This document shows positions 7,989 to 28,500 of a stretch of 50,660 nucleotides of DNA, piece after piece. The notes under the pieces are model-generated. The model was not told the DNA's origin, did not search any database, and saw nothing but the letters and a program-made list of their open reading frames with translations. Origin of the DNA: a virus. The position numbers were made by a program, and so were the translations under genes. Numbering within the stretch: position 1 is the stretch's first letter; each line of letters opens with the position of its first letter. Where the stretch lies: IMG/VR virus record IMGVR_UViG_3300017917_003580, positions 1 to 50,660 of that record; one strand, 5' to 3'.

Positions 7989-9662
7989 TTAAAGAGTTTC
8001 TAATCCTCTTACGTATACTTTACCGTAGAACTCAGGACGAACTACTTTCTTCGCGTAACGTGTCATAACACCTTTACGTGGAGTGAAGTTAACTGGATCG
8101 TATACAAGTGGAGTCATGATCAACGGAATATAAGGGCTAAATACAGCACCTGTTTCAAGGAATTGACTTCCTCTGAATCCCATTAGGATAATGTTCTCTT
8201 TCATGTATGGGTTTTTGTATACTGTGTATCGGTTATTGATTGCACCAATTTTTTGAACACCCGCAGCAAATTCCATTTTAGTTCCATCTGTATCAGCAGC
8301 GAATCCTGGGATAGACTCAAGGATAGTTGCAACTGCAGGAGATGTTACTAAGAAGTTAGCACCACCGCGTAATGTTTTTTGGTGAATTTTATTAGATACT
8401 TTTTGAAGTTTTGTACCTAAAGTTTGGAACCATCCACCTTGAGTGTTGTAGAATCCGGTATTATCAGTTACACCGTTTCTTACAAAGTTAGATCCATTCC
8501 ATACTTCATTGTTAATTGCTGACCAATACTCAGTTGTAGGAGCTGCAGAAATCAACATATCAAGGATCTCAAGATCAATTTCCATTGATACATATTCAGA
8601 AAGCATTGAAGTTAATTCAGCTTCAGCATCAATTGAGTGGTAAGCGTTAAGATCTTGAGCGAACTCAGGTGTCCAAACTGCTTTCAATTTACGTGTTTTA
8701 GCAACGATAGGCTCTGATTGAAGTTCTAAGTTCAATTCTGGGATATCAATATCTGTACCTTGGTTAATACCAGATGCACCTGATCCTTTGAATGGATTAT
8801 TATCTTCAAAATCACCACGAGCGTAATCTAATGGTTGTTTGCTATACTGAACTGTATAATCAGATGTACCATTTAATGAACCTGTTGTAGAAACAACGAA
8901 TTCAATTCTACCTTGTGCAGCATTATATTTTGTAAATGCTGGAACGTTCATTGCAGCTGTCAAGTTAGATCCTGAAGTTAAGATAAATGATCTTACCGCA
9001 GTATAATCTGGATTAACTAAAGATGCTGTTGATACATACACCAATGTATAATTAGCTAAGTTGTTTGTAAATGATGAATCAAAGTTTACAGATGCAGATG
9101 CAGCCGCCGGAGTTAATGATGTCATTGATGAAGTAGTAGCAGTAGCTGTATTACTAGAAGTATCATTAATTGAATATCCAAAACGACCTGCTCCGTAAAG
9201 ACCTCCCGTTGGATCACCAGATGTATTAGTTACACCAAATAATGAATCATCAGACTCAGGTGAAGCAAATGGATGACCAGAAGTTGATACTGGATCAGCT
9301 TGATCTGCTGTGAAACCTGGTTGAGCTGTACCATATTTAAAATCTAAGTAAAATACTAGACCTGATGGCAAGTTCATTGGTTGTACTGATACGAATTCTT
9401 TTGCAGCAAATTCAGCAAAGATACGACGTACCAATGGAAGTGCTACACCAGCCCACTCTTCAGATCCTTCTGCTGTACCTGTTTGTGAAGCTTCTTTTAC
9501 TAATTGTCTTGCTTGGTTTTCAAGCAATTGAGCCATACCTGCTCTTTCTGTCTCATTTCTAAGACCTTCTAAAAGTCCCGTTCTTTCCCACTTTGCAACT
9601 GTTGCTACTGATGCAGCACGTTGAGAAGCGTCTGGACTTTGTAATAATGAATTTAAACTCAT
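7989..9662 (-). CDS. gp23: Major capsid protein gp23
   Basis: The 557-residue protein is a T4-type major capsid protein. The N-terminal 57 residues form a helical propeptide with LLE at 30-32 and 46-48 and LVKE|A at 54-58. The last is the likely analogue of the T4 gp21 cut site (FLTE|A). The mature chain opens with a GVALPLVRRIFAEF segment and VQPMNLPSGLVFYLD, typical of gp23. The C-terminus is VVRPEFYGKVYVRGLETL. T4 gp23 has 521 residues, so there is a moderate insertion, here a Ser/Thr/Asp-rich region at about 120-230. AAGGAG precedes the ATG. It follows gp22 directly and ends in a strong terminator, fitting very high late expression. Confidence 0.95.
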   Translation of the reverse strand: MSLNSLLQSPDASQRAASVATVAKWERTGLLEGLRNETERAGMAQLLENQARQLVKEASQTGTAEGSEEWAGVALPLVRRIFAEFAAKEFVSVQPMNLPSGLVFYLDFKYGTAQPGFTADQADPVSTSGHPFASPESDDSLFGVTNTSGDPTGGLYGAGRFGYSINDTSSNTATATTSSMTSLTPAAASASVNFDSSFTNNLANYTLVYVSTASLVNPDYTAVRSFILTSGSNLTAAMNVPAFTKYNAAQGRIEFVVSTTGSLNGTSDYTVQYSKQPLDYARGDFEDNNPFKGSGASGINQGTDIDIPELNLELQSEPIVAKTRKLKAVWTPEFAQDLNAYHSIDAEAELTSMLSEYVSMEIDLEILDMLISAAPTTEYWSAINNEVWNGSNFVRNGVTDNTGFYNTQGGWFQTLGTKLQKVSNKIHQKTLRGGANFLVTSPAVATILESIPGFAADTDGTKMEFAAGVQKIGAINNRYTVYKNPYMKENIILMGFRGSQFLETGAVFSPYIPLIMTPLVYDPVNFTPRKGVMTRYAKKVVRPEFYGKVYVRGLETL

Positions 9663-12035: not shown

Positions 12036-12665
12036 TTATATCCTACATTTACCATCTTCACATAATATTGACGTAATAATACTATTTACGCCGGCATATT
12101 TGTTTGTTGTTATATTTTTATTAACAGATTCATTCATGCTCGTAGGCCTCATAAAAGCACCATGAGTTGATGGATTTGAAACAAAATCCCAACAAATCAA
12201 TTCAAAATCTTCTTGTACTTCTACTACACCTTCACTGCGCAATTCTTTAACCGAACCCATTCCTCTACTAGAAATACCTAAAGTAATACCTGCTTTAAAA
12301 AGTGATTTTAAAATATTTCCCGATGGTGTTTCTAATATTTGTACAGCTCCACATAAATCATCGCCTTTCCACCAAATTTTCAAAACATTGTGCGAAACAT
12401 TGTTCAAGTTAACTACTGATGATTCTGGATGATCTAATTCTCCTAATGCTCTATGTTGATCAATATATTCGGTTTGATATCGTTTACATTCTCTTTCTAG
12501 GATATGTTTTGGATAGACTCTACCGTTTTGGTTCTTTGCTCCAGCTCGTTGCAATACACCTTGTACGACAAACCCACCCGGTACGCCATATGCTGCACCG
12601 GATTGTTCGGTCAGCGTTCCAACAGGTTTAAATGGTATATATTCTACGATTAACTGCTTTGACAT
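12036..12665 (-). CDS. gp21: Prohead core protease gp21
   Basis: The 209-residue protein is a T4 gp21-type serine protease that matures the prohead. It has GRVYPKHILERECKRY at 48-63, the catalytic His in ELDHPESS (His79), the nucleophile Ser in GISSRGMGSV (Ser132 or Ser133), and CWDFVSNPSTHGAF at 158-171. These are in the usual order and spacing for the family, which shares its fold with herpesvirus assemblins. T4 gp21 has 212 residues, so the length is normal. RBS AGGAGA precedes the ATG. Substrates in this window would be gp22, gp23 and the proteins with (L/I)xE leaders. Confidence 0.93.
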   Translation of the reverse strand: MSKQLIVEYIPFKPVGTLTEQSGAAYGVPGGFVVQGVLQRAGAKNQNGRVYPKHILERECKRYQTEYIDQHRALGELDHPESSVVNLNNVSHNVLKIWWKGDDLCGAVQILETPSGNILKSLFKAGITLGISSRGMGSVKELRSEGVVEVQEDFELICWDFVSNPSTHGAFMRPTSMNESVNKNITTNKYAGVNSIITSILCEDGKCRI

Positions 12666-14269: not shown

Positions 14270-16105
14270 TTATAAAATATTATTCTCATCTAATAAAGTT
14301 CCAGCATCTGTATCTGTATCTTTATTTTTTGTTATAGATTCTGATATAATGGAATATGATTTTCCGTATTTAGAATTTTTTAAAGTTTTTAATATACTTT
14401 CATGAGCTAAATCTAATCTACGTTCTCGACGCGGATCTGGTAAAAATGCAGACTTTTGATTTTCAACATCGAAGCTTTGATCCATTTCTTTTTTACCCGT
14501 AGGATCCCATCCAAATGCATTTTTGTGTTGTCCAAATTTAATTCCTTCTTTTGGACGGCCACCTTTGTCTTTATCTTCTACATCATCAGAACTCATATGC
14601 ATTGACGCTAAATCATGTGGAGTTCCATATGATACTCCTGTTACTGCAGGATCATTTCCTTCTTGTTCAAGTTGGTTTTGACGGAAACGTAATTTTAAAT
14701 CTTCAATAACATTGGTACGTTCTTGCAACCATTGATCTTCTGACATATTGAAAATGTATTCATATATGTATTTATCTGAAACAAGTTTTGAATCTTTCAT
14801 TGCAGTTGCTAATGTCATTTTTTCAGTCATTAATGCAACTTTTTGTTGATCATAAATAATTGACGGAGCTGTTAATTCTAATTCAAAACCAATTAAATCT
14901 TCATTATCATATCCTTGAGCATATAAATGTATGATTGCAATTTTATATAATTCGGATACAACTATTTTTTGAATACGTTCAATTGTTCTAGCAAAACGTA
15001 TATCCATTGACGCTAATGTAGTTTTGCCTTCAACTGCTTCTGCATATCCTAAAAATGGTTTAGGAATTTTAAGAGCAGCCATCATTTTATCTTTAACATA
15101 ATTGATATCATCAATACCTGTAAAAGTCATACCTGGTAATGTATCTATTGATGTTTGTGATTGTCCTCCACGCACTGGTAAATAATAATCTTCCAACATG
15201 TTGTTAAGATTAAACTTTAAATTGTAATTACCAGTATTTTGATCTACGTGTGGAATTTTTTTCATTTTGTTGATAACTTGTTCCATGAATGTATCAACTT
15301 CATTTGGTGGAATATTACCAATATCAATTTTAAAAATACGTTTTTCTGGTGCACGCATTATTCTGTGAATAAGCATTGCATCTTCTAACATTGTAAGTTT
15401 TTGAAATTCTTTACGAGCACCTTCTAACATTGATTTACCATATGGCAAAAAGTTGGAATCTGATAACATTCTAAAATGTGCTACTTCAAAAACATCATAC
15501 ATTAAATTAGGACTAGAAGCATGGCGAAATTTAATTTTATAATCTCCTGTTTCATCATCAAATTCTTCCCAACGTTCTACTTCATAACTAGAAAATGGAC
15601 GAGCATTAATGACTCCTAATTCTTCTGCTATATCTAATTTTAAAAAGAAATCTCCGTATTTAGCCATATTTCTAATCCATGGCCAAAGATTAAATTCTAT
15701 ATTTAATACATCATAAAATAAATTATAAAGTATTTTTTGAAGTTGCGTTTTATTAGTTTTAATAGTTAATACATCTCCAAATTGATCAGCTAATGTTGAT
15801 TCATCTGAATATATATCAAGTGCGGCACTTATGATAGGATCTTTATCCATCATTTCGTAATCAGTGTATAACTGCATACGATTTTGATGCATATAATAAT
15901 TTGAATCATACCCGCCCATTCCACCTACACGGTGACGATTTGTACCATGTAAACGTGTATATCTATCAGCAACTTTTGTTTGATTTAAATTTCCAATTGA
16001 TTGCAACCGGTTTGAATCAACAACTTTAATTTGGTCTTTTCCGTATGCACGTACAATAACGTTAGTAGAAAATAAATTCTGTAATCGTTTTCTTAATGAT
16101 GCCAT
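14270..16105 (-). CDS. gp20: Portal vertex protein gp20
   Basis: The 611-residue protein is a T4-type portal. It has YTDYEMMDKDPIISAALDIY at 76-95, NLWPWIRNMAKYGDFFLKLD at about 138-157, VAHFRMLSDSNFLPYGKSML in the wing, and a crown/stem region with MEQVINKMKKIPHVD and LPGMTFTGIDDINY. A DMDIRFARTIERIQK-like helix follows. T4 gp20 has 524 residues; the surplus is a hydrophilic C-terminal tail rich in Lys, Asp and Ser. It forms the dodecameric ring through which DNA is packaged and to which terminase and neck bind. No strong ribosome site is visible, only an A-rich run before the ATG. A candidate late promoter sits 15 bases upstream. Confidence 0.95.
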   Translation of the reverse strand: MASLRKRLQNLFSTNVIVRAYGKDQIKVVDSNRLQSIGNLNQTKVADRYTRLHGTNRHRVGGMGGYDSNYYMHQNRMQLYTDYEMMDKDPIISAALDIYSDESTLADQFGDVLTIKTNKTQLQKILYNLFYDVLNIEFNLWPWIRNMAKYGDFFLKLDIAEELGVINARPFSSYEVERWEEFDDETGDYKIKFRHASSPNLMYDVFEVAHFRMLSDSNFLPYGKSMLEGARKEFQKLTMLEDAMLIHRIMRAPEKRIFKIDIGNIPPNEVDTFMEQVINKMKKIPHVDQNTGNYNLKFNLNNMLEDYYLPVRGGQSQTSIDTLPGMTFTGIDDINYVKDKMMAALKIPKPFLGYAEAVEGKTTLASMDIRFARTIERIQKIVVSELYKIAIIHLYAQGYDNEDLIGFELELTAPSIIYDQQKVALMTEKMTLATAMKDSKLVSDKYIYEYIFNMSEDQWLQERTNVIEDLKLRFRQNQLEQEGNDPAVTGVSYGTPHDLASMHMSSDDVEDKDKGGRPKEGIKFGQHKNAFGWDPTGKKEMDQSFDVENQKSAFLPDPRRERRLDLAHESILKTLKNSKYGKSYSIISESITKNKDTDTDAGTLLDENNIL

Positions 16106-16152: not shown

Positions 16153-17730
16153 TTATAACAACCAGGTTAGATTTTCATCATCCGCGCCATTATTCCAAGA
16201 CCAACCTGTATCTTGACGTCGTTGATTGTTAGTATAAATAACTGGTTCTGTTTTTTTGAAATGTGATAGTGCGCGTTTATTAAGTTCAATACCGTGTTGT
16301 CGAAGTTTAAGAGATGTATCTCTCAACCAAAGTCCAATACAGAATGCCATAACTAAATCATCATTATAACCATTTTGTGATTGAGCTTTACCATTTAGCC
16401 AAACAAAAACAAATAATTCTTGAATCAGCCGTTTTGATCTAATAATTGGTGTTCGTTCTCGCATATACATTTCAAGAGCCGAAATCATTAATGGACGCGT
16501 ACGTGATGTTGTTGAAACTCCCGGTACCATTTGTGATTTGTCTTTCGTATCATAACCTTTTTTAAGTTGTACGTCTATATCAACATACCCATCATCTTTA
16601 TATGTATAAAATAAATTTTCATAATTACGATCCAATGCAGGTTGAATTGCAGCCCAACCTATGTTTGCATTTTCAATTGCTAGTAACGCATTGTTCCATT
16701 CAGTTGCAACCGATACAAGCATATTACCAAAATCTTTCGGAGGAAGTTTTCCTTTGTATTCTGCAACTTGTGATACATTTTCAACATCAATAACATGAAA
16801 TGTCGACCAGTCGCCGCCATCACCCCTAGCAACGTCAGCTACTACTACATAATTTTTTTCATAGTTAGGATATTCCCAAATCCAATATGCATTATCATAT
16901 CCTCTTCGTTCTATAGGATCAGAACATTTTTGTTCATATTCTAGCAATACAGCACCATCTACTACAGTATGTCCTGATGAAATAAAGTCACAATCACATT
17001 CTTGTGCTGCACCTCTTTCGCCTAGAAGTTGAGTTTGTTGATCTCGCCAATTTTGATCTCGTTCCGGGTGTACGGTCCAATGCAATTTGATTGTATGAAA
17101 CCCGTTTATCTCTTGTTCGGCTTCTGACCATACTGAATGAAACCAATTACCTACCCCATTAGGTGTAGATAAAACAATTGCACCTCCACCCGTTGATAAT
17201 GTAGCTTGCGATGCTATCCATATTTCTTCAATGTTTCTAATGAATGCAGCTTCATCTATAATTAGCAATGATAATGCTTCAGAACGTGCACCGGTGGTTG
17301 CAGATGATACTGCTTTGATTTGCGAACCGTTTTTAAATTTAAGAGAAAGTTTATTATCGGCTTCAATATTTCCTTTCAACCAACTAGGCAAATTGTCATG
17401 CATTACTCGCACTTTCGTTACTAAGTTTTTTGCTACTTCTTGAGTTGTTGCAATAACAAGTACGTTAAAATCTTGTTTGAATAACATGCTCCATAGAGCA
17501 AATCCTGCCGAAAGAGTTGATATACCTAACTGACGTGACTTAAGGATTACATTGTATCTATTATCTCGTAATTCTGTTAATGATGATTCCTGAAATGGAA
17601 ATAAATTAAATTTTATCTTTCCTTTTTTAGGATGTTGAATATAACAATATTGTCTCATAAAAAACACAGGATCTTTAGCACACATCGCGTACTGTTGTTG
17701 AATAACCTGTTTTATGTTTGGTTGAGACAT
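16153..17730 (-). CDS. gp17: Terminase large subunit gp17
   Basis: The 525-residue packaging motor has an N-terminal ATPase and a C-terminal RNase H-fold nuclease. The Walker A-like SRQLGIST is at 65-72, and Walker B LLIIDEAAF is at 155-163 with the catalytic Glu. The coupling motif region is IVLSTPNG at 185-192. Nuclease acids are Asp299 in ADVARGDGGD, Glu353 in AIENANIG, and Asp457/458 in YNDDLVMAF. T4 gp17 has 610 residues; the shorter length is within the usual range for marine relatives. The gene is preceded by two small membrane proteins and a candidate small terminase, and followed by the portal, which is T4-like order without the tail sheath and tube genes in between. Confidence 0.96.
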   Translation of the reverse strand: MSQPNIKQVIQQQYAMCAKDPVFFMRQYCYIQHPKKGKIKFNLFPFQESSLTELRDNRYNVILKSRQLGISTLSAGFALWSMLFKQDFNVLVIATTQEVAKNLVTKVRVMHDNLPSWLKGNIEADNKLSLKFKNGSQIKAVSSATTGARSEALSLLIIDEAAFIRNIEEIWIASQATLSTGGGAIVLSTPNGVGNWFHSVWSEAEQEINGFHTIKLHWTVHPERDQNWRDQQTQLLGERGAAQECDCDFISSGHTVVDGAVLLEYEQKCSDPIERRGYDNAYWIWEYPNYEKNYVVVADVARGDGGDWSTFHVIDVENVSQVAEYKGKLPPKDFGNMLVSVATEWNNALLAIENANIGWAAIQPALDRNYENLFYTYKDDGYVDIDVQLKKGYDTKDKSQMVPGVSTTSRTRPLMISALEMYMRERTPIIRSKRLIQELFVFVWLNGKAQSQNGYNDDLVMAFCIGLWLRDTSLKLRQHGIELNKRALSHFKKTEPVIYTNNQRRQDTGWSWNNGADDENLTWLL

Positions 17731-18112: not shown

Positions 18113-18444
18113 TTCTTTTTTCTTTTATTAGTTTTATTTAAAATATTTTCTTTAGCTTGTTTTGCCGTTTTATTAGTAGTTGTAGTAGTTGTTTGTTTTT
18201 TGTCTTTTAAATTTTTAACATCTGAAACCAATTGTGCAATGTCTTGTTTAACTTGATTTTTTTGATCTTCAATTGCATCAACTTTGCCTGTAATTATATC
18301 TACTTGTTGATTATTACCATCAATCTTTTTTGCTGATTTGACTTGTTGTTTATCATCATGTTTCTTTTTTGCTGCAACAGCAATTCCAAATAATGCTAAT
18401 ATAGCGCCTACTATAATAGCCCAATATTTTTTAATTGTTTTCAT
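18109..18444 (-). CDS. Single-pass membrane protein with coiled coil, candidate lysis partner
   Basis: I choose the ATG at 18444 (MKTIKKYW, 111 residues). GGAG lies seven bases upstream, while the ATG four codons earlier overlaps that site. Residues 8-28 (WAIIVGAILALFGIAVAAKKK) form one transmembrane helix, N-terminus in. They are followed by a Gln/Asp/Val-rich coiled coil and a Thr run, and the tail is highly basic (KTNKRKKK). This layout resembles inner-membrane spanins, or small holin accessory proteins. It overlaps both neighbours, so it is translated together with the signal-peptide protein downstream. No peptidoglycan hydrolase is visible in the window. Confidence 0.55.
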   Translation of the reverse strand: MKTIKKYWAIIVGAILALFGIAVAAKKKHDDKQQVKSAKKIDGNNQQVDIITGKVDAIEDQKNQVKQDIAQLVSDVKNLKDKKQTTTTTTNKTAKQAKENILNKTNKRKKK

Positions 18445-19081
18445 TGTTTTCTCCATTTAATCGGTTTAAAAATCTTTCTTTAAATTGTTCAAAGCTTTTT
18501 TCTATTTTTTCTTCAAATTCTTCTGGTGTCATTTGTGCGGCCCACGTTTCAATTTCACCATCGCTATTTACAACAAATTTTGATGCTTCAGTATATGTTT
18601 GTTTAAGCATAGCAACATCTTTTTCTGCTTGACGTAACCATGCTTCGGCATTTTGACGTATTCGCTGTTTTTCATATTCTTCATATGTGCCAGCTTTTCT
18701 CATCTCATGTTCCCAATCAATGGTACAATCTAAACACATTCCATTAAGTTTACGCATTTTTTCATCTGCTGGTTTCGGAGATAAACACGTACATGTATCT
18801 TTTCTACAATTTGGAAATTTACGTAATTCATCACGTATTTCTTGAAATACTTCTGTATTTTTTGTTTTACGAACTCGAAAGCCATCTTTTTGTTCAATGA
18901 CCCACGTCATTCCTGATGCATCAGTTTCTTCCCATACGTCTCCAACTTCATGGCGTTCTGATTTGCGAGCTTGTGCTTCAGCATCAGAAAACCCCACTGT
19001 CTTTTTACTTTGAAACTTATGCGTGCCATCAATCATTTGTTGAATGGCTTTGATATTTTGTAACTTGTTTGATTTTGACAT
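18431..19081 (-). CDS. Cys-rich protein upstream of terminase, candidate small terminase
   Basis: The 216-residue protein starts MSKSNKLQNIKAIQQMIDG and contains a putative metal site: Cys92, Cys97, Cys99, then Cys116-x2-Cys119. Its middle is VGDVWEETDASGMTWVIEQ, a strand pattern. The C-terminal 90 residues are helical with many Glu/Lys. I recognise the general N-terminal pattern from uncharacterised proteins next to terminase genes in aquatic T4-like phages, but not a named family. T4 gp16 is about 164 residues and sits immediately before gp17. The position here, two small genes before gp17, makes a small terminase plausible. A DNA-binding packaging factor or late regulator is also possible. 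Confidence 0.55.
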   Translation of the reverse strand: MSKSNKLQNIKAIQQMIDGTHKFQSKKTVGFSDAEAQARKSERHEVGDVWEETDASGMTWVIEQKDGFRVRKTKNTEVFQEIRDELRKFPNCRKDTCTCLSPKPADEKMRKLNGMCLDCTIDWEHEMRKAGTYEEYEKQRIRQNAEAWLRQAEKDVAMLKQTYTEASKFVVNSDGEIETWAAQMTPEEFEEKIEKSFEQFKERFLNRLNGENNENN

Positions 19082-19958: not shown

Positions 19959-20537
19959 TTAAATAATATTACAGCTTTTTTGTAAATTTTCTTGTGCAGT
20001 AATAATTTGTAAATTACTAATATGTGCTATTTGTTCGGCTGGGATATTATTTGTATACCCATATATGATTGGAATAATATGATCAACGTGATATGTAAAC
20101 TTGCCGCGTTTTTGATAATTTTCTAATGTATGTAATGGTTGTTTTTCAGTTAACGATCTTACTTGCATATAATATGATTTTTTCTCCGGTAACGATTCTA
20201 ACCATTGTTCATAATTCATATTAAATCGTACTTCGATCATATATCTTCTGTGATTTTCTAATCTAATTTTATTCCATTTTGCTTTTGGACAAAATAATTT
20301 ATTATCTTTGATAAATTTACGAAATGTTGTGCTAGTAATTTTATTTGATAGCTTACAATATTGTTCAATACCTAATGTGTTATCTTTAAAATTTTTATTT
20401 ATAAAATCATCATATAAATTCATGTAATCAATAAATGAAAATTTTTTATATATAAACTGTTTTTTTCTACCTTTCAACGATATTGAAATATTTTGTTTAT
20501 GAGTTTCTGATAAATTAAATCCTGCTGATCTCGACAT
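19959..20537 (-). CDS. Free-standing HNH homing endonuclease
   Basis: The 192-residue protein has a NUMOD3-like DNA-binding motif near its N-terminus (FNLSETHKQNISISLKGRK, residues 7-25) and an HNH nuclease at its C-terminus. The nuclease shows YHVDHIIPIIYG (His150, Asp152, His153), then HISNLQIITAQENLQKS with His172, Asn175 and Asn183. These proteins cut a specific site and spread their own gene by recombination; they do not serve virion assembly. The gene is a discrete unit with short gaps on both sides, consistent with insertion between two late genes. No intron boundaries or disrupted flanking frame are seen. Confidence 0.88.
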   Translation of the reverse strand: MSRSAGFNLSETHKQNISISLKGRKKQFIYKKFSFIDYMNLYDDFINKNFKDNTLGIEQYCKLSNKITSTTFRKFIKDNKLFCPKAKWNKIRLENHRRYMIEVRFNMNYEQWLESLPEKKSYYMQVRSLTEKQPLHTLENYQKRGKFTYHVDHIIPIIYGYTNNIPAEQIAHISNLQIITAQENLQKSCNII

Positions 20538-20548
20538 CCTATTTTCTT

Positions 20549-20562
20549 ATAAATATAAATAT
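20549..20562 (-). promoter_or_regulatory. Tandem ATATTTAT elements before the HNH gene
   Basis: The minus strand reads GATATTTATATTTATAAGAA, with two overlapping copies six bases apart (20555-20562 and 20549-20556). The second ends 11 bases before the ATG at 20537, and the first overlaps the TGA of the nucleotidyltransferase-ligase gene. Confidence 0.5.
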
Positions 20563-22586
20563 CACCGTGCGTACTTTAATACCCCTAGTATCTGATTAAC
20601 GGGAGCAAATGCGCCTGTTAACTTGTATGTATTGCCACCATATACAAATACTACACCCTCCGATGGTACAATTGCTTCAAATCCTCCTAACCGCTGTATA
20701 CGCTTTAATTCATGTTCTAATTTTTTAATAGTATTTATATCTTGAGTCGTTTCTAATTCCCTAATTAAATCTGCTAAGTCTTTTTTAAGTTCTTGCATCG
20801 ATTTTGATGGATTTGCTGCTAAGAAATTTTCTGCATTACGTAATACTACAGCGCCTAATCTTAAAAATATGCTTTCAAACGGTTCCATGTTTTGTTTGTA
20901 ATACGTTTTAAAATCTTTTTTATCAAATTCAGTTACCCATGCAGAAAATTCCGGATTTGTAATTTGTTTTTTAAGTGCTGCAATATTTGCAGATTTATCA
21001 AAGAATGCCCAACGATTAATTAATGCTGTTAAAATTGAATCTGAAATATCATAACCCAATGCTTGTGCTTTTTCTCGTATTACATCTCCCCACCACGCTT
21101 TATGATAATCAGAAACTAAATCCGTATCTTTTAATCCATAACGATCGCGTAATTGATCTACTTCATTAAAAAATGCAGCTTGTTGATCTTCAAAATCTGA
21201 TAATCTACCGATTTTAATTTTTTGCGGTGGAATAAATGAAAATGTTTTTTGTAAATGTGCATTTGCATCTTGTATGATGCTTTGCAATGCGCCGCCTCCG
21301 GTTAAATCTGTTTGTACAACGTTACCTGCTTCATCATATTCAACTAAATTATGGAACTGTAATACTGCAACATCGTACGAAATTACGTTTTTAGTTGCAG
21401 GATAAATAATTTCCATGTTAGCAAATACTCGTCCGTTTTTAAAAATACCGTTTAAAACATTTGCATCTACTCGATTGAATGCTTCTGCTAAATCTTCTGC
21501 TGCATTTCCGAATGCATCTGATATAGGTCCGCGTCCTCCAAACTTATCTTGAATTTCTTGTACAGTCATCGGATTAATTACAGTACCTTTATTTCTAGCA
21601 AAACCAATTTGTCCATTTTTATATGTTACTTGAATATTTTGACCATCGGTTTTTTCTGTTACTGCAGCTTCTATATCTAAACGTCCACCTAATGCACGTG
21701 CAATTATTTCTTTAACATCTCCAAATGAAAGTGCATAGTCATCATACGGATGTGCCATATGTCCTGCAGCGCCACCTTCTTTAATCATTTGAATTGCTTC
21801 AGTTAGTGGAACTCCAACTACGGTTTTTTCAAATTCTTTAAAATCATATACAAATGGACGTCCAAAACTATTATGTAGAAACTTTTTAAGTTTTGCAATT
21901 TTTTGTTTGTGTTTTTCTGCTGTTTTTGGATCCATATATCCTTCAACTACATTTTTAACATCTTCTTGCAAAACATGTTGCCACCATTTTTTTGAAAATA
22001 ATGTTTCTTGTACACCCTTTAATATTTGCCATACATTTTTAATTTCAGAATCATTTTGTGCTGGATATGCTTGTTTAAACGCATCATAATCGCCATTTGC
22101 TAATGCAGCACGTACTGTAGTTGCTGAAATGGGTTGTCCGTTTTTATCAGTCAGTGGATCAATATCTAAATTTAATTCCATTGCATCTACTCCTGCAGGA
22201 ATTTTACGTCCTTTTTTATCTCCAATTGTTTTGTATTTATCTACGTTAGGAACAAAATCTTTTGCACGTACGTAATCATCTCCTTTCGTTGATGCTGCCA
22301 TGGCAAAACGACCTGTTGCATCTTGCGGTAATGCAAATAGATATTCATATGCAGCCATGATAGGAGAATTGAATTCTGTTGGTTGTATTTCAATGTTTGG
22401 ATTTCGATTAATTAAATTGAATATTTCAATTGTTTTTTCTCTAGTAATTCCATCACGGTCTTTAGGTCCAATTAAAAGTATTACCTTATCAGTATCAGGG
22501 TGTTGTGCATAACGTTCTGCAAGTGCTAAATGTGCTCCCGTTAATGGTTTAAATCCTCCAGGAAATAACGTTGTTATTTTGTTCAT
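20562..22586 (-). CDS. Nucleotidyltransferase fused to an RNA/DNA-ligase-like domain
   Basis: The 674-residue protein joins two nucleotide-transfer modules. Residues 1-165 form a cytidylyltransferase/NMNAT-like Rossmann domain with FPGGFKPLTGAHLALAE (HxGH-type motif in the form TGAH) and ISATTVRAAL at 153-162. Residues about 270-674 carry covalent nucleotidyltransferase (ligase/capping enzyme) motifs. Motif I is EKTDG at 311-315 (Lys312 nucleophile), a motif III-like FANMEIIYP is at 388-396, motif IV SEGVVF at 642-647 and motif V YKLTG at 654-658. A helical insert of about 190 residues separates motifs III and IV. The known families make or transfer nucleotides; the substrate here is unknown. 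Plausible roles are RNA or DNA end repair, capping, or NAD-linked chemistry. Its neighbours are late genes. Confidence 0.75.
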   Translation of the reverse strand: MNKITTLFPGGFKPLTGAHLALAERYAQHPDTDKVILLIGPKDRDGITREKTIEIFNLINRNPNIEIQPTEFNSPIMAAYEYLFALPQDATGRFAMAASTKGDDYVRAKDFVPNVDKYKTIGDKKGRKIPAGVDAMELNLDIDPLTDKNGQPISATTVRAALANGDYDAFKQAYPAQNDSEIKNVWQILKGVQETLFSKKWWQHVLQEDVKNVVEGYMDPKTAEKHKQKIAKLKKFLHNSFGRPFVYDFKEFEKTVVGVPLTEAIQMIKEGGAAGHMAHPYDDYALSFGDVKEIIARALGGRLDIEAAVTEKTDGQNIQVTYKNGQIGFARNKGTVINPMTVQEIQDKFGGRGPISDAFGNAAEDLAEAFNRVDANVLNGIFKNGRVFANMEIIYPATKNVISYDVAVLQFHNLVEYDEAGNVVQTDLTGGGALQSIIQDANAHLQKTFSFIPPQKIKIGRLSDFEDQQAAFFNEVDQLRDRYGLKDTDLVSDYHKAWWGDVIREKAQALGYDISDSILTALINRWAFFDKSANIAALKKQITNPEFSAWVTEFDKKDFKTYYKQNMEPFESIFLRLGAVVLRNAENFLAANPSKSMQELKKDLADLIRELETTQDINTIKKLEHELKRIQRLGGFEAIVPSEGVVFVYGGNTYKLTGAFAPVNQILGVLKYAR

Positions 22587-22602: not shown

Positions 22603-22610
22603 ATAAATAT
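22603..22610 (-). promoter_or_regulatory. ATATTTAT-type candidate late promoter before the nucleotidyltransferase-ligase
   Basis: The minus strand reads ATATTTATATAAAAAGAAAT, 16 bases before the ATG at 22586, and its first base overlaps the upstream stop codon. Confidence 0.5.
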
Positions 22611-25327
22611 TATGATTCTATAATTGGTGTTGTCGGCGAAGTTATTGTACTCCCTACCGATCTACTAGTACGCCAAACGAAATTTTTCATTTTAAGTGTA
22701 CCAGTGGGAGCTGTTGATAATGTGTATACAACTAAATAAATTTGTACATACATTCCTTGACGATTAGCAAAATTTGTTTTTCCTGTTCCACCGACGACTG
22801 TTTCTTTTGTTTCTGCTCCTGATTCGATTGTATTAGATGCTACTGAATTTCCTAGTGTTTGTAATCCCCCTAACTCGGCAACATCTTGAAATGTGCCGTA
22901 ATAACTACTACCTACCGTAGGACCTAAACTAGCCGATGCAATAAATGTTTGAAATCTAATAGTTACAGGATCAGTAAGACTATCATTATCTATTTCATAT
23001 GTATATGAAACTTGACATCTAGTTTCCCCTGGTAAAATAAATGTTTGAAATACCGAAGCTGTCTGTGCGGTAGCTAAACTAGTTATTGATGCTAAGTTAA
23101 ATGTAACTTCAGATTGATCAAAATATACAATCCGTCCTACATTAACCCCATCAACAAATTCTGAATTCGAATCAAATAATGTATTACCATTATTAATTGC
23201 TATAAATGAAGATGCAGTTACATCGCCGTCAGCTGTTAAATAAAATCCACTTGATGAAATTTCTAAATTACCATTGCTTCCGGAAATATATTGAGAATTA
23301 GGATCGCCAAAGAAAAATGTTTCAGTATGTACATCTAATTCCGATGGATTAGTTGCATATCTAAAATAATTATTTGCATCGCCGTATAATTCTAAACCAA
23401 CGCCACTATATGGAACTCCACCTTTAGTTCCTTGCGAACCTGATAATGCTGATCCGGACCAAATTAAAAAACCAGGAAATCCGGCATCAAATCCTTCATA
23501 TCCTAATGATCTAACAAAACCAGTATCTTTATATCCACTGATTGCAACACCTGATTCTAATGAATCTGCAACATACAGTGAACCGGTAAGCATTGAATAA
23601 TCGCCATCAATGTATCTATTACCACCTTGCCAAGATTTATCATACAAATAAGATATTTGTTTGCTAATAACACCATCCACATTGTAATATTCTACTTTAA
23701 AAGATATTTGATTGTTTGCTTTATGTGGTGTATTGATAAGTGATCTAATTCTAGTATAATTAGGAGAATATCCTGCATCATTATCTGTAGTTGTACGAAC
23801 ATCTGCAATTTGCCAGGTACCTGATTCTACTACAAATAACAAGGCACCAGTTCCATCATAATTGCTTTCAAAATTAAATACTACGTCATCAAAACGCTGT
23901 GAATCTGAAGTTACTTCTAACTCTCCGATGCGTTTACCTAATATTCTTGGTAGTTCTTGATTAAAATAGTCTGTTGGATCAAATGCTACAGCACTTCCAG
24001 AAATATATACTGATATTCGAGGATTAACACCTGTTGTATCTCGCGTTCCTAATGCATCTATAGAAACTTTATATGATGATGTTGCAATAAATACTCCATT
24101 ATATGCAGATTTATTTTGCACTACTAAAACAGCATTTTGTGCAGAAATATCCGTTACACTTGTAATGTTCATTGCATTATTTAAAGATGCAGTTGACCAA
24201 GTAAGTGTTGGAGCTGTTCCGGTGTTTTTACCCGTATATGTAAATCCTTCCCAATACGTATCGATAATGCTTTGAGATGTAAATGCACCTATACTCTGAT
24301 CAGGAAATAAAGATGCTGTGCTAGTTACGAATATTTCTGTTTCTTCAAGTTCAACATCATTAACTAATTCCCAAGTACCAACCGTACCTTTATTGTTTGT
24401 ATAAACTTTTATTCGAGATACATCGCCAGTTGCGGGTTCTAATCCTTTAATTTGTAGAAGAGCAAATGATTGTGAATTTTCTGTTGCAACATACGTAGGT
24501 GTTTGTTCATATGTTAATGAAAATGAAGAAGCAGCAAATTCCGCGTATACGTGAGGAAAAATGCTTTGGCTACTATAAACCGTATATTCTTCATCTAATA
24601 GAATCGTAGTGTCAGATAATACTTTTTTTATTGTACTTACGTAAGGAGAGGAAACCACCGGATAATTAGGAGTAGGAGAAGGATTTTGTGGAGTAGCAAC
24701 AGTTATTGTTCCCGTTTTCATATCTCCGGTGAATTTACCTCCTACAAGTTCAATTGCAGGTGCACCATTAAGTGTAAATAATCGTACTGTTCCAGTTGAA
24801 TATGTTGGAAACTGTTGACTACCAGAATATATTCGATCTAATTGTACGCCTACTTGTTCTGATACCATCACTTCTGGTAATTTAGAAAATATGATTTCGG
24901 ATACGTTTGATACATTTGGATTAACAGGTACCGTTCTTTTCCATTTAACATTTGGACGACCTTGCCATTCTTGTGGTACGGATTGACCTTGTATAGTTTG
25001 TGCTTCAGCTAAAAGTGTTATGCTACAATCGCCAGGAGATGTTTCTGAATAAATATAAATTGCAATTACACGAGACTTATCTTCATCAATGTAATCTACA
25101 ACTTCGGAATAAATTGGATCACCATTATAATCTAATACTTCGATATTTAATACTCCGCCTACACGTAAATTAGTAGGATGACCTCGAAGTTTAAATAGAT
25201 TTTTACCAGCTGTTAAACGTGTAGGAAATTCAGTTATTTGAAAATAGTCCGGTGAGGTTAATGATGTATCTTCAAAATAAACCGGAATGAATTCTAAACC
25301 TTTATATACTGCTTCTTTGCGTTTCAT
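22610..25327 (-). CDS. Large virion structural protein, tail-fibre/appendage type
   Basis: I choose the ATG at 25327 (MKRKEAVYKGLEF, 905 residues); the ten codons ahead of it would need a TTG start. The N-terminal 130 residues are beta-rich, with RGHPTNLRVGGVLNIEVLDY and a DYIDEDKSRVIAIYIY segment. The middle is Ser/Thr/Gly-rich with many short strands. Around residues 660-720 there is a fibre-like stretch (NGNLEISSSGFYLTADGD, then SFIAINNGN) typical of phage appendage proteins. The C-terminus contains GSSYYGTFQDVAELGGLQ. No enzymatic residues are seen. It follows the gp47-gp46 gene but has its own candidate late promoter at 25347-25354. Role inferred: long tail fibre segment or whisker. Confidence 0.65.
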   Translation of the reverse strand: MKRKEAVYKGLEFIPVYFEDTSLTSPDYFQITEFPTRLTAGKNLFKLRGHPTNLRVGGVLNIEVLDYNGDPIYSEVVDYIDEDKSRVIAIYIYSETSPGDCSITLLAEAQTIQGQSVPQEWQGRPNVKWKRTVPVNPNVSNVSEIIFSKLPEVMVSEQVGVQLDRIYSGSQQFPTYSTGTVRLFTLNGAPAIELVGGKFTGDMKTGTITVATPQNPSPTPNYPVVSSPYVSTIKKVLSDTTILLDEEYTVYSSQSIFPHVYAEFAASSFSLTYEQTPTYVATENSQSFALLQIKGLEPATGDVSRIKVYTNNKGTVGTWELVNDVELEETEIFVTSTASLFPDQSIGAFTSQSIIDTYWEGFTYTGKNTGTAPTLTWSTASLNNAMNITSVTDISAQNAVLVVQNKSAYNGVFIATSSYKVSIDALGTRDTTGVNPRISVYISGSAVAFDPTDYFNQELPRILGKRIGELEVTSDSQRFDDVVFNFESNYDGTGALLFVVESGTWQIADVRTTTDNDAGYSPNYTRIRSLINTPHKANNQISFKVEYYNVDGVISKQISYLYDKSWQGGNRYIDGDYSMLTGSLYVADSLESGVAISGYKDTGFVRSLGYEGFDAGFPGFLIWSGSALSGSQGTKGGVPYSGVGLELYGDANNYFRYATNPSELDVHTETFFFGDPNSQYISGSNGNLEISSSGFYLTADGDVTASSFIAINNGNTLFDSNSEFVDGVNVGRIVYFDQSEVTFNLASITSLATAQTASVFQTFILPGETRCQVSYTYEIDNDSLTDPVTIRFQTFIASASLGPTVGSSYYGTFQDVAELGGLQTLGNSVASNTIESGAETKETVVGGTGKTNFANRQGMYVQIYLVVYTLSTAPTGTLKMKNFVWRTSRSVGSTITSPTTPIIES

Positions 25328-25346
25328 TGAATTTGATATCTTTATT

Positions 25347-25354
25347 ATAAATAT
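25347..25354 (-). promoter_or_regulatory. ATATTTAT-type candidate late promoter
   Basis: The minus strand reads GATATTTATAATAAAGATAT, overlapping the TGA of the gp47-gp46 fusion and 19 bases before the ATG at 25327. It separates a DNA-metabolism gene from a late structural gene. Confidence 0.5.
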
Positions 25355-28300
25355 CAAACATGATTGATCTTGCTAAATCCTTGTGTCTTGTTTACTTCAA
25401 TTAAATTGTCAACCATATCTCGCATAGAATCAACATGTGATATGATGATTGAAAAATCAAACTTAGTACGGAAATATTCAAACAAATTAACTACGGAAGA
25501 AATATGTTCTGAATCTAAACTTCCCCAACCTTCATCAATAGCAATGAAATTAGGACGTGGTAATGCTGAAACATTGATAAGTGCTATACGAATTGCTAAG
25601 CTAGATATAAAACGTTCCATTCCACTAGTTAATTCTAATGGCCAATAATTATCTTCGTCATATATGATATAACCATTAATATTTTTACCATCCGTATTCA
25701 TTACCATGTTAAATTCAACAATTTGATTGAGTACATTGTTTATTTCAGCTTCTATTTTAGGAAGAGCTTTTGTAATTAATTCGTATGGAATACCATCTCT
25801 TTTAACTGATTCTAAATAATAACCATATGCCTTGTATTCTGTTTCAAGTTGTTGATAACGTTCTAGTTGTTGCATTGCCGTAGCTTTTTGTGTTTTTGCT
25901 ACTTCAATTGCACCATAATTATTTTTTATTTCAGATTGAATTGTTTTGATTTGTTCTGATATTGTAGAAATTTTTTCTTTACATTCATTGATTTGGGTAT
26001 CAATTGTTTTGTTGTGTTTGATTGCCGTTTCATTGTGAAGAAATGATTGTTGACGTTCAATTACAGTTTCTAATTCCGATTCGCGGGTTTGTAATTCACT
26101 TTCTAAAATTTGAAGTTGCAATTCGTTTCGTTCTGATTTTGTTTGTTCATGTGCAACAGTATTTTTTAACTTAGACATTTTTTCTGCTGTATCAAATACT
26201 GGACTTAAATTTTCTAATTGTGTATTTAATTCTTCAATTTCATTTTGTGTTACCTTTAATACATTTCGATCATTATCAATTGTATTTTGGGCTTCGATTG
26301 CATTTTGAACGAATACGTTAGATGTACAGTATTTGCATTGCGGATCATATTGATGTGTTTCAAGATGATTGATTTTTTCTTGTTTTGCATTTACTATCTC
26401 CTGTTGTTTTCTTTGTATTTGTGTAAGTGTATTAACTTGAGTTTGTATTTTAGCATATTGCTTTGTTTGTGTGTCTATTTCTTCAACATTGAATTCAGCT
26501 AACGATTTTTTATGTGCATGTATATCTGCTAATAACTGTTCTAAATCTTGTTCTGCAGTTTCAATATCCGTTTGGATTGATTCGATATGTTCAATTAAAT
26601 CTTGTTCTTGTTGTTTTAATTCTTCATAATTTGGACCATCATATGTAGTCGGTAGTTTAGTTTCAATTAATTCAACAATACGTTCTTGCAATACGTTACG
26701 TTGATCTTGTAACGAGTCTTCTTCATTTTCTAATGCAGTAATTGTATCTTGGTTTGCAGATATAACATTGTCAGAATTAATAATAATTTCAGCAAAATCT
26801 GTTTTTTTATAATCTTTTAAACGACCTGCAGTTTCTTTAATTTCATCTGCCGCAAGTTGATAAAGTTGTTCAAATACCGTAATATCTAAAAACTGTGAAA
26901 GTAAGTCTTTGCGTTCTTTCTGAGACTTTTCAATAAAGTTATTGTTGTCTGCTTGAAGTGAAAATGCCGTTAAGATAAAATCATCATATGTGCCTAAATA
27001 ACGACGAATGTTTTTGTTTGTATCACTTCGTTCTTCGCCATTCAAATTTTCTGCATCAGTATAAAAATCAACATCAACTTTTACGTGTGTTTCTTTCTTT
27101 TTATTTTGAGTACCTCTACGTTCAATTGTATATGTAACGCCATTCATTTCAAATTTAAAAACACCTCGGAACCAAGTTTTTTTATTATTTAAAACTTCAT
27201 TTGCTTTTCCGGTTTTACTACATTTATCAAAAATAGTATAAGTTATTGCATCTAGCAAAGATGACTTACCAGACGTATTTGCCGCAAATAAACCACATAC
27301 ATCTGACAGGTTTTCGAAATTTAACACATTGCCTTCACCATATGAAAACATGTTATCAAATTCAAATGAAATGGGATGCCATGTTGTATGCCGTATAGAT
27401 TCTACTGCAGGAAGTTTTGAATTAATTGTTCTATTAATATGACGTATTGCATCTGTCTCTTCTGGAGTTGCTTGAGGAAAGTGTGTATCAATATAGTCAG
27501 TTAATAATGTATTTTGATATTCAACATCTCGTACATTTCCTATTGCTAAATTAGAAGATGTATTTGCAGAACCATGTTCAATTGTACGTTGAATTGTTAT
27601 GTCTTGTACATTGTACTTTTTACGTATTGTTGCAATAAGCTTCTTCATACCTGCCGCACTAGTACCATTGAATTTGATTCTAACACGTGGTTTATTAGGC
27701 ATTCGGTGCGGATGTGATACAATGGTATCGCCTTGAGTTTCTAATGTAACATAACCATAGTCATTTTCTATTTGCACAAAATCTGCTGTCTTTTTTTGCA
27801 AGTCCCAAACAAGTATTCCATGATCTAATGCTTCTCCATGATTCTGTTGAATCAAACTTCCTGGATATGCAATTGTACAAGCATCATCTAAAAACTGGGC
27901 CGGTTTATGAATATCACCTAACAATGTAATGTCATGCCCTGCAAATAATTCTGTAGTTACATGTTCGTTTGAAATTTGATAACCAATATCCGTTTTAGCA
28001 GTATTAACAGCACCATGATGAAGTGCAATTTTATATGAAGCAGTAAAATCTTTTGCTCGAATATAATCTGCAGGTGTTTTGTCGACTGCCATATGATTCC
28101 ATGTTACACCTCCTAATTCAAATAGTCCATTGTCTTTTATGAAATGAATATTAGGATTACGAATAACATCTAGTACGGGACTAACAGCATCAATACGATG
28201 CATATTGTTTAGATTCATATCATGGTTACCTAAAATAACAATTGTAGGTATTTTAAATCCATTAAAGAAATCAACTAGCATCTGAACTAGTTCTGGCGAC

Positions 28301-28500
28301 ATATCTAATTTGCTATGCACGATATCACCAGTAACAACTGCTATGCTATTACTAGTTGCAGTTTTATTAATGTATTCAAATAGATTTTCAAATACTTGAC
28401 GGTATTCTCCGTGTCTTTTTAATGTTCTAATATGTATATCTGAAACATGATAAATTTTATCTATTTTATCTATTCCAATATCAATTCGTTTTATGTCCAT
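25354..28500 (-). CDS. gp47-gp46: Single-chain Mre11-Rad50 recombination nuclease (gp47-gp46 fusion)
   Basis: The 1048-residue protein carries both halves of the recombination nuclease complex that are separate genes 47 and 46 in T4. Residues 1-360 are Mre11/SbcD-like: DIHI (Asp21, His23), GDIVH at 58-62, GNHD at 91-94, HH at 161-162 and GDIHKP at 195-200 supply the metal ligands. Residues 375-1048 are Rad50/SbcC-like: P-loop LFAANTSGKSS (Lys412), a long coiled coil with zinc hook CKYC at 722-725, signature LTSGMER at 957-963, Walker B FIAIDEG with SLDSEH after it, and the H-loop SH at 1021-1022. No stop or frameshift lies between them. The complex resects DNA ends for recombination-dependent replication. 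The gene overlaps the primase by ten bases. Confidence 0.95.
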   Translation of the reverse strand: MDIKRIDIGIDKIDKIYHVSDIHIRTLKRHGEYRQVFENLFEYINKTATSNSIAVVTGDIVHSKLDMSPELVQMLVDFFNGFKIPTIVILGNHDMNLNNMHRIDAVSPVLDVIRNPNIHFIKDNGLFELGGVTWNHMAVDKTPADYIRAKDFTASYKIALHHGAVNTAKTDIGYQISNEHVTTELFAGHDITLLGDIHKPAQFLDDACTIAYPGSLIQQNHGEALDHGILVWDLQKKTADFVQIENDYGYVTLETQGDTIVSHPHRMPNKPRVRIKFNGTSAAGMKKLIATIRKKYNVQDITIQRTIEHGSANTSSNLAIGNVRDVEYQNTLLTDYIDTHFPQATPEETDAIRHINRTINSKLPAVESIRHTTWHPISFEFDNMFSYGEGNVLNFENLSDVCGLFAANTSGKSSLLDAITYTIFDKCSKTGKANEVLNNKKTWFRGVFKFEMNGVTYTIERRGTQNKKKETHVKVDVDFYTDAENLNGEERSDTNKNIRRYLGTYDDFILTAFSLQADNNNFIEKSQKERKDLLSQFLDITVFEQLYQLAADEIKETAGRLKDYKKTDFAEIIINSDNVISANQDTITALENEEDSLQDQRNVLQERIVELIETKLPTTYDGPNYEELKQQEQDLIEHIESIQTDIETAEQDLEQLLADIHAHKKSLAEFNVEEIDTQTKQYAKIQTQVNTLTQIQRKQQEIVNAKQEKINHLETHQYDPQCKYCTSNVFVQNAIEAQNTIDNDRNVLKVTQNEIEELNTQLENLSPVFDTAEKMSKLKNTVAHEQTKSERNELQLQILESELQTRESELETVIERQQSFLHNETAIKHNKTIDTQINECKEKISTISEQIKTIQSEIKNNYGAIEVAKTQKATAMQQLERYQQLETEYKAYGYYLESVKRDGIPYELITKALPKIEAEINNVLNQIVEFNMVMNTDGKNINGYIIYDEDNYWPLELTSGMERFISSLAIRIALINVSALPRPNFIAIDEGWGSLDSEHISSVVNLFEYFRTKFDFSIIISHVDSMRDMVDNLIEVNKTQGFSKINHV

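What the first reader, a model, noticed from the sequence alone, without database searches (positions are those of the whole stretch)
20562..22586. Nucleotidyltransferase fused to a covalent ligase-type domain
One chain carries a Rossmann nucleotidyltransferase (GGFKPLTGAH, ISATTVR) and all five ligase/capping motifs with Lys312 as nucleophile, separated by a large helical insert before motif IV. The two chemistries could act in sequence: make a dinucleotide or activated nucleotide, then transfer it to an RNA, DNA or protein. NAD-like capping or end repair of broken tRNA or DNA ends are candidates. I know similar proteins only as unannotated members of aquatic T4-like genomes.
Basis: partly seen in the sequence, partly recalled or inferred. 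Interest (0 to 1): 0.75.

Follow-up and report, generated by a model that had tools for sequence, protein, structure and literature searches.

The report
Phage nucleotidyltransferase fused to RNA-ligase-type enzyme
A gene in the head-building cluster of an aquatic T4-like phage makes one protein with two enzyme halves, one that resembles NAD-making enzymes and one with the fold and catalytic residues of RNA ligases; it belongs to a large unannotated phage family, some of whose relatives look as if they are packed into the virus particle and delivered to the next host.

Summary
ORF 20562-22586 (-), 674 aa, holds a HIGH-superfamily nucleotidyltransferase (PPAT/NadD/NadM fold, Z 12-13) and a ligase-type domain (residues ~266-674). 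Lys312, Arg331, Glu392, Glu643 and Lys655 are invariant in all 221 complete relatives. A ~210-residue helical insert precedes motif IV, as stated.

The gene is locked into the head cluster: terminase lies downstream on the same strand in 196 of 224 relatives. The same pairing recurs fused in reverse order (S-PM2) and as neighbouring genes (cyanophage DUF6267 plus 'cytidyltransferase').

Some relatives carry N-termini like T4 capsid-targeting peptides; one cyanophage nucleotidyltransferase of this kind was found in virions by mass spectrometry. The window's own protein lacks that peptide.

Best reading: a late, head-module enzyme that seals RNA ends and makes NAD+, probably virion-delivered in part of the family. 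'Make then transfer' is untested.

The parts
20562..22586 (-). Whole ORF, 674 aa: HIGH nucleotidyltransferase fused to ligase-type domain
   Evidence: alignments
22002..22586 (-). N-terminal HIGH-superfamily nucleotidyltransferase domain, residues 1-195
   Evidence: predicted structure (pLDDT mostly 80-90); PPAT Z 13.1, NadD 12.3, NadM 11.9; NadM-like profile matches in relatives
22530..22559 (-). GGFKPLTGAH motif (HIGH-type nucleotide-binding motif), residues 10-19
   Evidence: invariant or nearly so in 26 relatives
22110..22130 (-). ISATTVR motif (ISxTxxR of NMN and other HIGH nucleotidyltransferases), residues 153-159
21792..22001 (-). Linker with a conserved helical stretch (residues 196-265), poorly predicted
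   Evidence: conservation; low pLDDT
20565..21791 (-). C-terminal ligase-type (covalent lysine nucleotidyltransferase) domain, residues 266-674
   Evidence: model pLDDT 90, pTM 0.87; RNA ligases top fold matches
21750..21761 (-). H276-x-x-H279 of the GHMxHPxD motif in front of motif I, of unknown role
   Evidence: H276, H279, P280 221/221
21651..21653 (-). Motif I Lys312, predicted adenylylated nucleophile (EKTDGQN)
   Evidence: 221/221; 158/158 by a separate count
21594..21596 (-). Arg331 (FARNKG, motif Ia position)
   Evidence: 221/221
21411..21413 (-). Motif III Glu392 (MEIIYPATKNVISYD)
   Evidence: 221/221
20673..21299 (-). Helical insert between motif IIIa and motif IV, residues 430-638
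   Evidence: secondary structure of the model
20658..20660 (-). Motif IV Glu643 (PSEGVVF)
   Evidence: 221/221
20622..20624 (-). Motif V Lys655 (YKLTG)
   Evidence: 221/221
22610..25357 (-). Gene directly upstream, 915 aa, no family match, conserved neighbour
   Evidence: found in 105 family loci
18431..19081 (-). Cys-rich 216-aa protein, conserved downstream neighbour
   Evidence: found in 213 family loci
16153..17730 (-). Large terminase subunit of the same-strand head cluster
   Evidence: PHROGs; downstream on the same strand in 196 of 224 family ORFs
14270..16105 (-). Portal protein
   Evidence: PHROGs
12036..12665 (-). Prohead (head maturation) protease, T4 gp21 type
   Evidence: PHROGs phrog_207 1.4e-54
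7989..9662 (-). Major head protein
   Evidence: PHROGs

Best explanation
The protein is a two-enzyme fusion made with the head proteins. Shown by sequence and predicted structure: an N-terminal HIGH nucleotidyltransferase and a C-terminal covalent nucleotidyltransferase of the RNA-ligase fold, with an intact catalytic set and no OB domain. Inferred: the C-terminal half takes AMP from ATP onto Lys312, passes it to a 5'-phosphate end and seals it to a 3'-OH, most likely on RNA; the N-terminal half joins AMP to NMN (or a related phosphate) to make NAD+ or a similar dinucleotide. Inferred, with evidence from relatives only: the product is made late, and in part of the family is packed into the head and injected, so that broken tRNA and NAD+ depletion can be repaired at once in a host whose defences have stopped translation.
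For: Fold: RNA ligases lead the list (Naegleria Rnl Z 8.9, Trl1 8.8, T4 Rnl1 8.4, Rnl2 8.1), DNA ligases Z 6.7 or less. Catalytic residues 221/221. PF09414 hits in 22 of 49 members. The chain stops shortly after motif V. Nucleotidyltransferase: NadM-type profiles best in relatives (L158 1.4e-8, L083 2.3e-6), fold Z 11.9-13.1. Linkage: NTase-ligase fusion (window), ligase-like DUF6267 followed by NTase in S-PM2 and in phrog_455, neighbouring genes in S-PRM1, P-SSM4 and S-CAM3. Head cluster: terminase downstream in 196 of 224, portal in 141. Virion signs: stand-alone relatives start MKIYNTFEHFLTE, MGFYNYSQFVSE, MKTKILNFNQFITE, close to T4 IPII/IPIII MKTYQEFIAEA, a peptide shown to direct capsid packaging and to be cut after [LI]xE (PMC9026906); N-terminal extensions carry [LIVF]xE in 18 of 19 against a shuffled mean of 11.5, maximum 17 in 1000 shuffles. 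S-CREM2 gp154, a nucleotidyltransferase of the related phrog_395, starts MKNFSSFLTEA and was detected in virions (PMC10665884 Table 3).
Against: No activity was measured. The window's own protein and its closest clade start straight at the nucleotidyltransferase and lack the targeting peptide. The mass-spectrometry support is 3 peptides for a separate protein, the authors warn of carry-over, and the ligase-like partner in that phage (gp87) is not in their list. The E of the LxE-GG boundary is replaced by M or C in 26 of 221. Motif V has K-L-T, not the K-x-K of Rnl2. Canonical RNA-repair partners are scarce: no KptA in five large relatives, one weak PNK phosphatase. No NadV-type NAPRTase in the same five, so an NMN supply would have to come from the host.
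Confidence: 0.45

Rival explanations
1. It is a DNA-sealing enzyme of the packaging or replication machinery: the ligase-type half closes nicks or ends in the DNA before or during packaging.
For: Locked to terminase and portal genes; none of five large relatives encodes a recognisable ATP- or NAD+-dependent DNA ligase of its own.
Against: RNA ligases outrank DNA ligases in the fold comparison; no OB domain after motif V; phages can rely on host ligase; the nucleotidyltransferase half is unexplained.
Confidence: 0.2
2. The two halves act in series. One form: the ligase half uses NAD+ and releases NMN, and the fused NMN adenylyltransferase turns NMN back into NAD+, so NMN works as a recycled carrier. 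Another form: the N-terminal half makes a dinucleotide that is put on an RNA or protein.
For: The activities are paired in three genetic arrangements, NadM-like profiles, no NadV in five relatives.
Against: No recognised NAD+-binding Ia domain; the fold neighbours are ATP-dependent ligases; stand-alone ligase-type relatives exist without a fused nucleotidyltransferase, though a neighbouring gene has one.
Confidence: 0.13
3. A virion polyprotein whose enzyme halves act independently once cut apart or injected; the ligase-type half could modify a host protein or RNA and not seal ends.
For: Relatives of 1274-1945 aa put further regions, including an HEMVHRK metallopeptidase-like motif, between the two halves; a gp21-type protease is encoded nearby.
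Against: The full ligase catalytic set is invariant, as expected for true ligases; no proteolysis data.
Confidence: 0.12
4. Ordinary NAD+ salvage enzyme with an inactive ligase-type domain kept as a binding module.
For: In huge phages a neighbouring gene carries a ligase-like region with the motif-I lysine lost or the motif altered (ENLDGS in L082, EKIQAS in L152), fused to a nucleotidyltransferase.
Against: In this family every catalytic residue is invariant in 221 of 221.
Confidence: 0.07

Closest known systems
T4 RNA ligase 1 and 2 and the PF09414/PF09511 RNA ligases
   Same: Fold, motif I lysine, motifs III, IV and V in order, no C-terminal OB domain; EIIYP-type motif III like the Rnl1-type ligase of phage Mel-JY01
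   Different: Below the Pfam cut-off; ~210-residue helical insert before motif IV, GHMxHPxD motif, KLT instead of KxK in motif V, fused nucleotidyltransferase
NadM / NadD / PPAT nucleotidyltransferases
   Same: HIGH-superfamily fold and motifs
   Different: TGAH in place of HxGH; substrate not determined; no Nudix or kinase partner as in phage NadM and NadR
Cyanophage DUF6267 (PF19782, T4-GC 71) next to 'cytidyltransferase' (T4-GC 190)
   Same: Ligase-like motif series (KWDGAP, PEGFV, LKLVDR) with an HLEHxED motif in front, and genetic link to a HIGH nucleotidyltransferase, fused in S-PM2
   Different: Profile comparison with the window's domain not significant; link rests on motif order and a BFVD fold match of the S-PM2 protein (E 5.9e-5); opposite domain order; near replication genes, not terminase
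T4 internal proteins and Alt
   Same: N-terminal peptide of some relatives resembles the IPII/IPIII targeting peptide
   Different: Not present in the window's protein; packaging untested
Phage polyvalent proteins (PMC5512222)
   Same: Multi-domain architecture in the longest relatives
   Different: This domain pair is not described in the passages found there; the extra regions have no Pfam match

Membership tests
Covalent lysine nucleotidyltransferase (ligase/capping) superfamily | Motif I KxDG with invariant lysine | tested here: met
   221/221
Covalent lysine nucleotidyltransferase (ligase/capping) superfamily | Motifs III, IV and V (Glu, Glu-Gly, Lys) in order | tested here: met
   E392, E643-G644, K655 221/221
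Covalent lysine nucleotidyltransferase (ligase/capping) superfamily | Ligase fold | tested here: met
   VIA Z up to 8.9 is only moderate, but the top 33 rows are all ligases
ATP-dependent RNA ligases (Pfam RNA_ligase) | Profile match over the curated cut-off | tested here: not met
   window 15.2 bits against 27; best member E 0.0032
ATP-dependent RNA ligases (Pfam RNA_ligase) | No OB domain after motif V | tested here: met
   chain ends 19 residues after Lys655, as a helix
ATP-dependent RNA ligases (Pfam RNA_ligase) | Seals RNA ends with ATP | not testable with these tools
   needs an assay
DNA ligase | C-terminal OB domain with motif VI | tested here: not met
   no residues left for it
NMN adenylyltransferase | HIGH-superfamily fold with ISxTxxR | tested here: met
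NMN adenylyltransferase | Profile match over the curated cut-off | tested here: not met
   window 17.9 bits against 112 (TIGR00482); relative L158 34 bits against 397
NMN adenylyltransferase | Uses NMN | not testable with these tools
   PPAT and NadD/NadM folds are near ties
DUF6267 (PF19782) | Profile match | tested here: not met
   not among the hits of the window protein at E 1 nor among the 25 commonest families of 49 members; hhalign no better than column-permuted controls
T4-type capsid-targeted internal proteins | N-terminal targeting peptide ending in [LI]xE | tested here: not met
   window protein starts MNKITTLFPGGF; met only in relatives

The most novel reading that the evidence does not exclude
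A family of phage polyproteins that combine NAD+ synthesis and RNA end sealing, are built with the head, packed into it and injected, so that the phage arrives with a preformed kit against defences that destroy NAD+ and cut tRNA before any phage gene is translated.
Probability: 0.25. Interest if true: 0.85.

Novelty: new variant of a known kind. Interest (0 to 1): 0.62.

Why it matters
It proposes a function for a very common aquatic phage gene that no library annotates, adds an unrecognised branch to the RNA-ligase fold, and shows that this chemistry and a NAD-type nucleotidyltransferase have been brought together more than once. It makes directly testable whether T4-like phages deliver NAD+ and RNA repair enzymes inside the virion.

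Tried and rejected
Chance motifs: rejected by invariance in 221 relatives and by the fold. Full-length structure prediction from close relatives gave a poor ligase half (low pLDDT); a diverse alignment of the domain alone solved it. Sequence search of PDB with the domain profile gave only ribosomal protein S6 matches judged spurious. Sequence homology to DUF6267 and to T4 Rnl2 by hhalign: not significant, so the DUF6267 link is stated as fold and motif resemblance only. Classic NadV-NadM salvage: no NadV in five large relatives. A targeting peptide in the window protein itself: looked for and not found. Proteolysis at the LxE-GG boundary: considered, but 26 of 221 relatives have M or C there, so not claimed. 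A count of targeting-like N-termini in one large relative of the window clade found only 2 in 198 ORFs, so the signal is not general in that clade. A weak match of NAD+ ligase PF01653 to the Mel-JY01 protein (E 0.004) was judged noise. The virion proteome table of PMC3037559 is in its supplement, which could not be read here.

Full report
Observation. The ORF is at 20562-22586 on the minus strand and encodes 674 aa. It lies in a 50.7-kb virus record that reads as a T4-like head and tail region: major head protein 7989-9662, prohead protease 12036-12665, portal 14270-16105, terminase 16153-17730, PhoH, primase and baseplate genes. No tRNA gene was found in the window.

N-terminal half. Residues 1-195 fold confidently and match HIGH-superfamily nucleotidyltransferases: PPAT Z 13.1, NadD 12.3, NadM 11.9. 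These are too close to choose a substrate. By sequence, relatives lean to NadM-type NMN adenylyltransferases (L158 E 1.4e-8, L083 2.3e-6). None of the matches reaches a curated equivalog cut-off.

C-terminal half. A model from 49 diverse relatives has mean pLDDT 90 and pTM 0.87. Foldseek's PDB list begins with T4 Rnl1, archaeal and thermophilic RNA ligases and T4 Rnl2 (E 0.004 to 0.02, so individually modest). VIA-align ranks Naegleria RNA ligase 8.9, fungal Trl1 8.8, T4 Rnl1 8.4, T4 Rnl2 8.1, and DNA ligases at 6.7 and below. Z values near 8 can occur by chance, but the first 33 rows are all ligases. The catalytic residues K312, D314, G315, R331, E392, E643, G644 and K655 are identical in 221 of 221 complete domains, as are H276, H279 and P280 of a GHMxHPxD motif in front of motif I. 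Pfam RNA_ligase is hit by 22 of 49 members; the window member and the best E-value (0.0032) stay well short of the cut-off of 27 bits. The insert before motif IV covers residues 430-638 and is helical; it was not searched for on its own. The chain ends 19 residues after Lys655, leaving no room for the OB domain that DNA ligases and capping enzymes carry (established knowledge).

Family. Architectures: nucleotidyltransferase plus ligase-type domain (window, Mel-JY01); with a ParB-like domain in front (L083, Pfam ParB_N 0.00044); with long unannotated regions between the halves in proteins of 1274 to 1945 aa, including an HExxH motif in some; and stand-alone ligase-type proteins (L082, L152, L155, L156).

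Context. Of 224 family ORFs (some contigs fetched twice), 196 have terminase downstream on the same strand, 141 the portal, and nearly all a Cys-rich 216-aa protein; 105 have the window's 915-aa protein. Stand-alone members are the exception and sit next to a gene that joins a ligase-like region, with the motif-I lysine lost or the motif altered in some (L082, L152), to a HIGH nucleotidyltransferase.

Recurrent pairing. In S-PM2 the 'cytitidyltransferase' contains the end of a DUF6267 protein (PEGFVAI, VKIVDRLEF) fused in front of a HIGH nucleotidyltransferase. In S-PRM1, P-SSM4 and S-CAM3 the two are neighbouring genes. DUF6267 (PF19782) is the Pfam name of that partner, present in about 470 phage records; phrog_455 spans both parts. 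DUF6267 shows the motif series KWDGAP, PEGFV, LKLVD after an HLEHxED motif. Profile comparison with the window's domain is not significant; the S-PM2 protein does appear in the BFVD fold search at E 5.9e-5. I therefore treat DUF6267 as a probable distant relative, not as the same family.

Virion link. T4 internal proteins II and III start MKTYQEFIAEA; this peptide targets proteins into the head and is cut after [LI]xE (PMC9026906). Stand-alone family members start MKIYNTFEHFLTE, MGFYNYSQFVSE, MKTKILNFNQFITE and MKFLKSYEEFLNE; L047 and L101, with the window's architecture, start MKSILQEFKQHL(T/A)E; a DUF6267 protein of phage Melnitz starts MLTLINFSKYITE. Of 19 N-terminal extensions before the nucleotidyltransferase, 18 have [LIVF]xE against a shuffled mean of 11.5; the sequences are related, so this is not 19 independent events. 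S-CREM2 gp154, a separate nucleotidyltransferase of phrog_395, starts MKNFSSFLTEA and was found in virions with 3 peptides (PMC10665884 Table 3); its authors note possible carry-over, and the DUF6267 protein of that phage is not in the table. The window's own protein has no such peptide.

Mechanism. Shown: the two folds (predicted), the complete catalytic set, the head-cluster location. Supported by relatives: NMN-type specificity of the first half, virion delivery in part of the family. Inferred: RNA as the substrate, ATP as the donor, and the use of both halves against NAD+ depletion and RNA breakage. Large relatives lack NadV, KptA and recognisable DNA ligases; Mel-JY01 and one large contig also carry a conventional RNA ligase, so this one is not simply a substitute.

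Verdict. A real, conserved and unannotated phage enzyme family; a new variant of the RNA-ligase fold joined to a HIGH nucleotidyltransferase. Interest 0.62.

Noticed in passing
25354-28500 (-): One 1048-aa ORF joins a Mre11/SbcD-type phosphoesterase (PF00149, 2.6e-11) to an SbcC/Rad50-type ATPase, the two subunits that T4 makes as separate gp47 and gp46.
   Followed up: partly
19959-20537 (-): A 192-aa protein with an HNH-like VDHIIPI stretch sits between the finding and its usual downstream neighbour (276-aa gene); among relatives only L214 has it, also right after the ligase-type gene. It looks like a mobile endonuclease insertion.
   Followed up: partly
L082:6259-8220, L152:7221-9068, L155:5594-7333: Huge-phage genes that join a ligase-like region, with the catalytic lysine replaced or the motif altered (ENLDGS, EKIQAS, EKLNGT), to a HIGH nucleotidyltransferase, next to a stand-alone active-looking ligase-type gene.
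   Followed up: partly
L273:3646-4848, L274:2860-3786: Cyanophage DUF6267 (PF19782, T4-GC 71), listed as unknown function, carries a ligase-like motif series and neighbours the cytidyltransferase gene.
   Followed up: partly
L084:3128-5851: Flavobacterium phage immuto protein of 907 aa joins a polymerase-beta-like nucleotidyltransferase region, a HIGH nucleotidyltransferase and an HEMIHHM metallopeptidase-like motif.
   Followed up: no
L361:2213-2926: S-CREM2 gp156, detected in virions (PMC10665884), has the look of a polymerase-beta nucleotidyltransferase (TGGNANYNYTPYSDIDLHL).
   Followed up: no
L145:3388-7212: A region TIYHYTDKKGLAGILKS resembles ADP-ribosyltransferase-type domains inside a 1274-aa relative; no Pfam match.
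   Followed up: no
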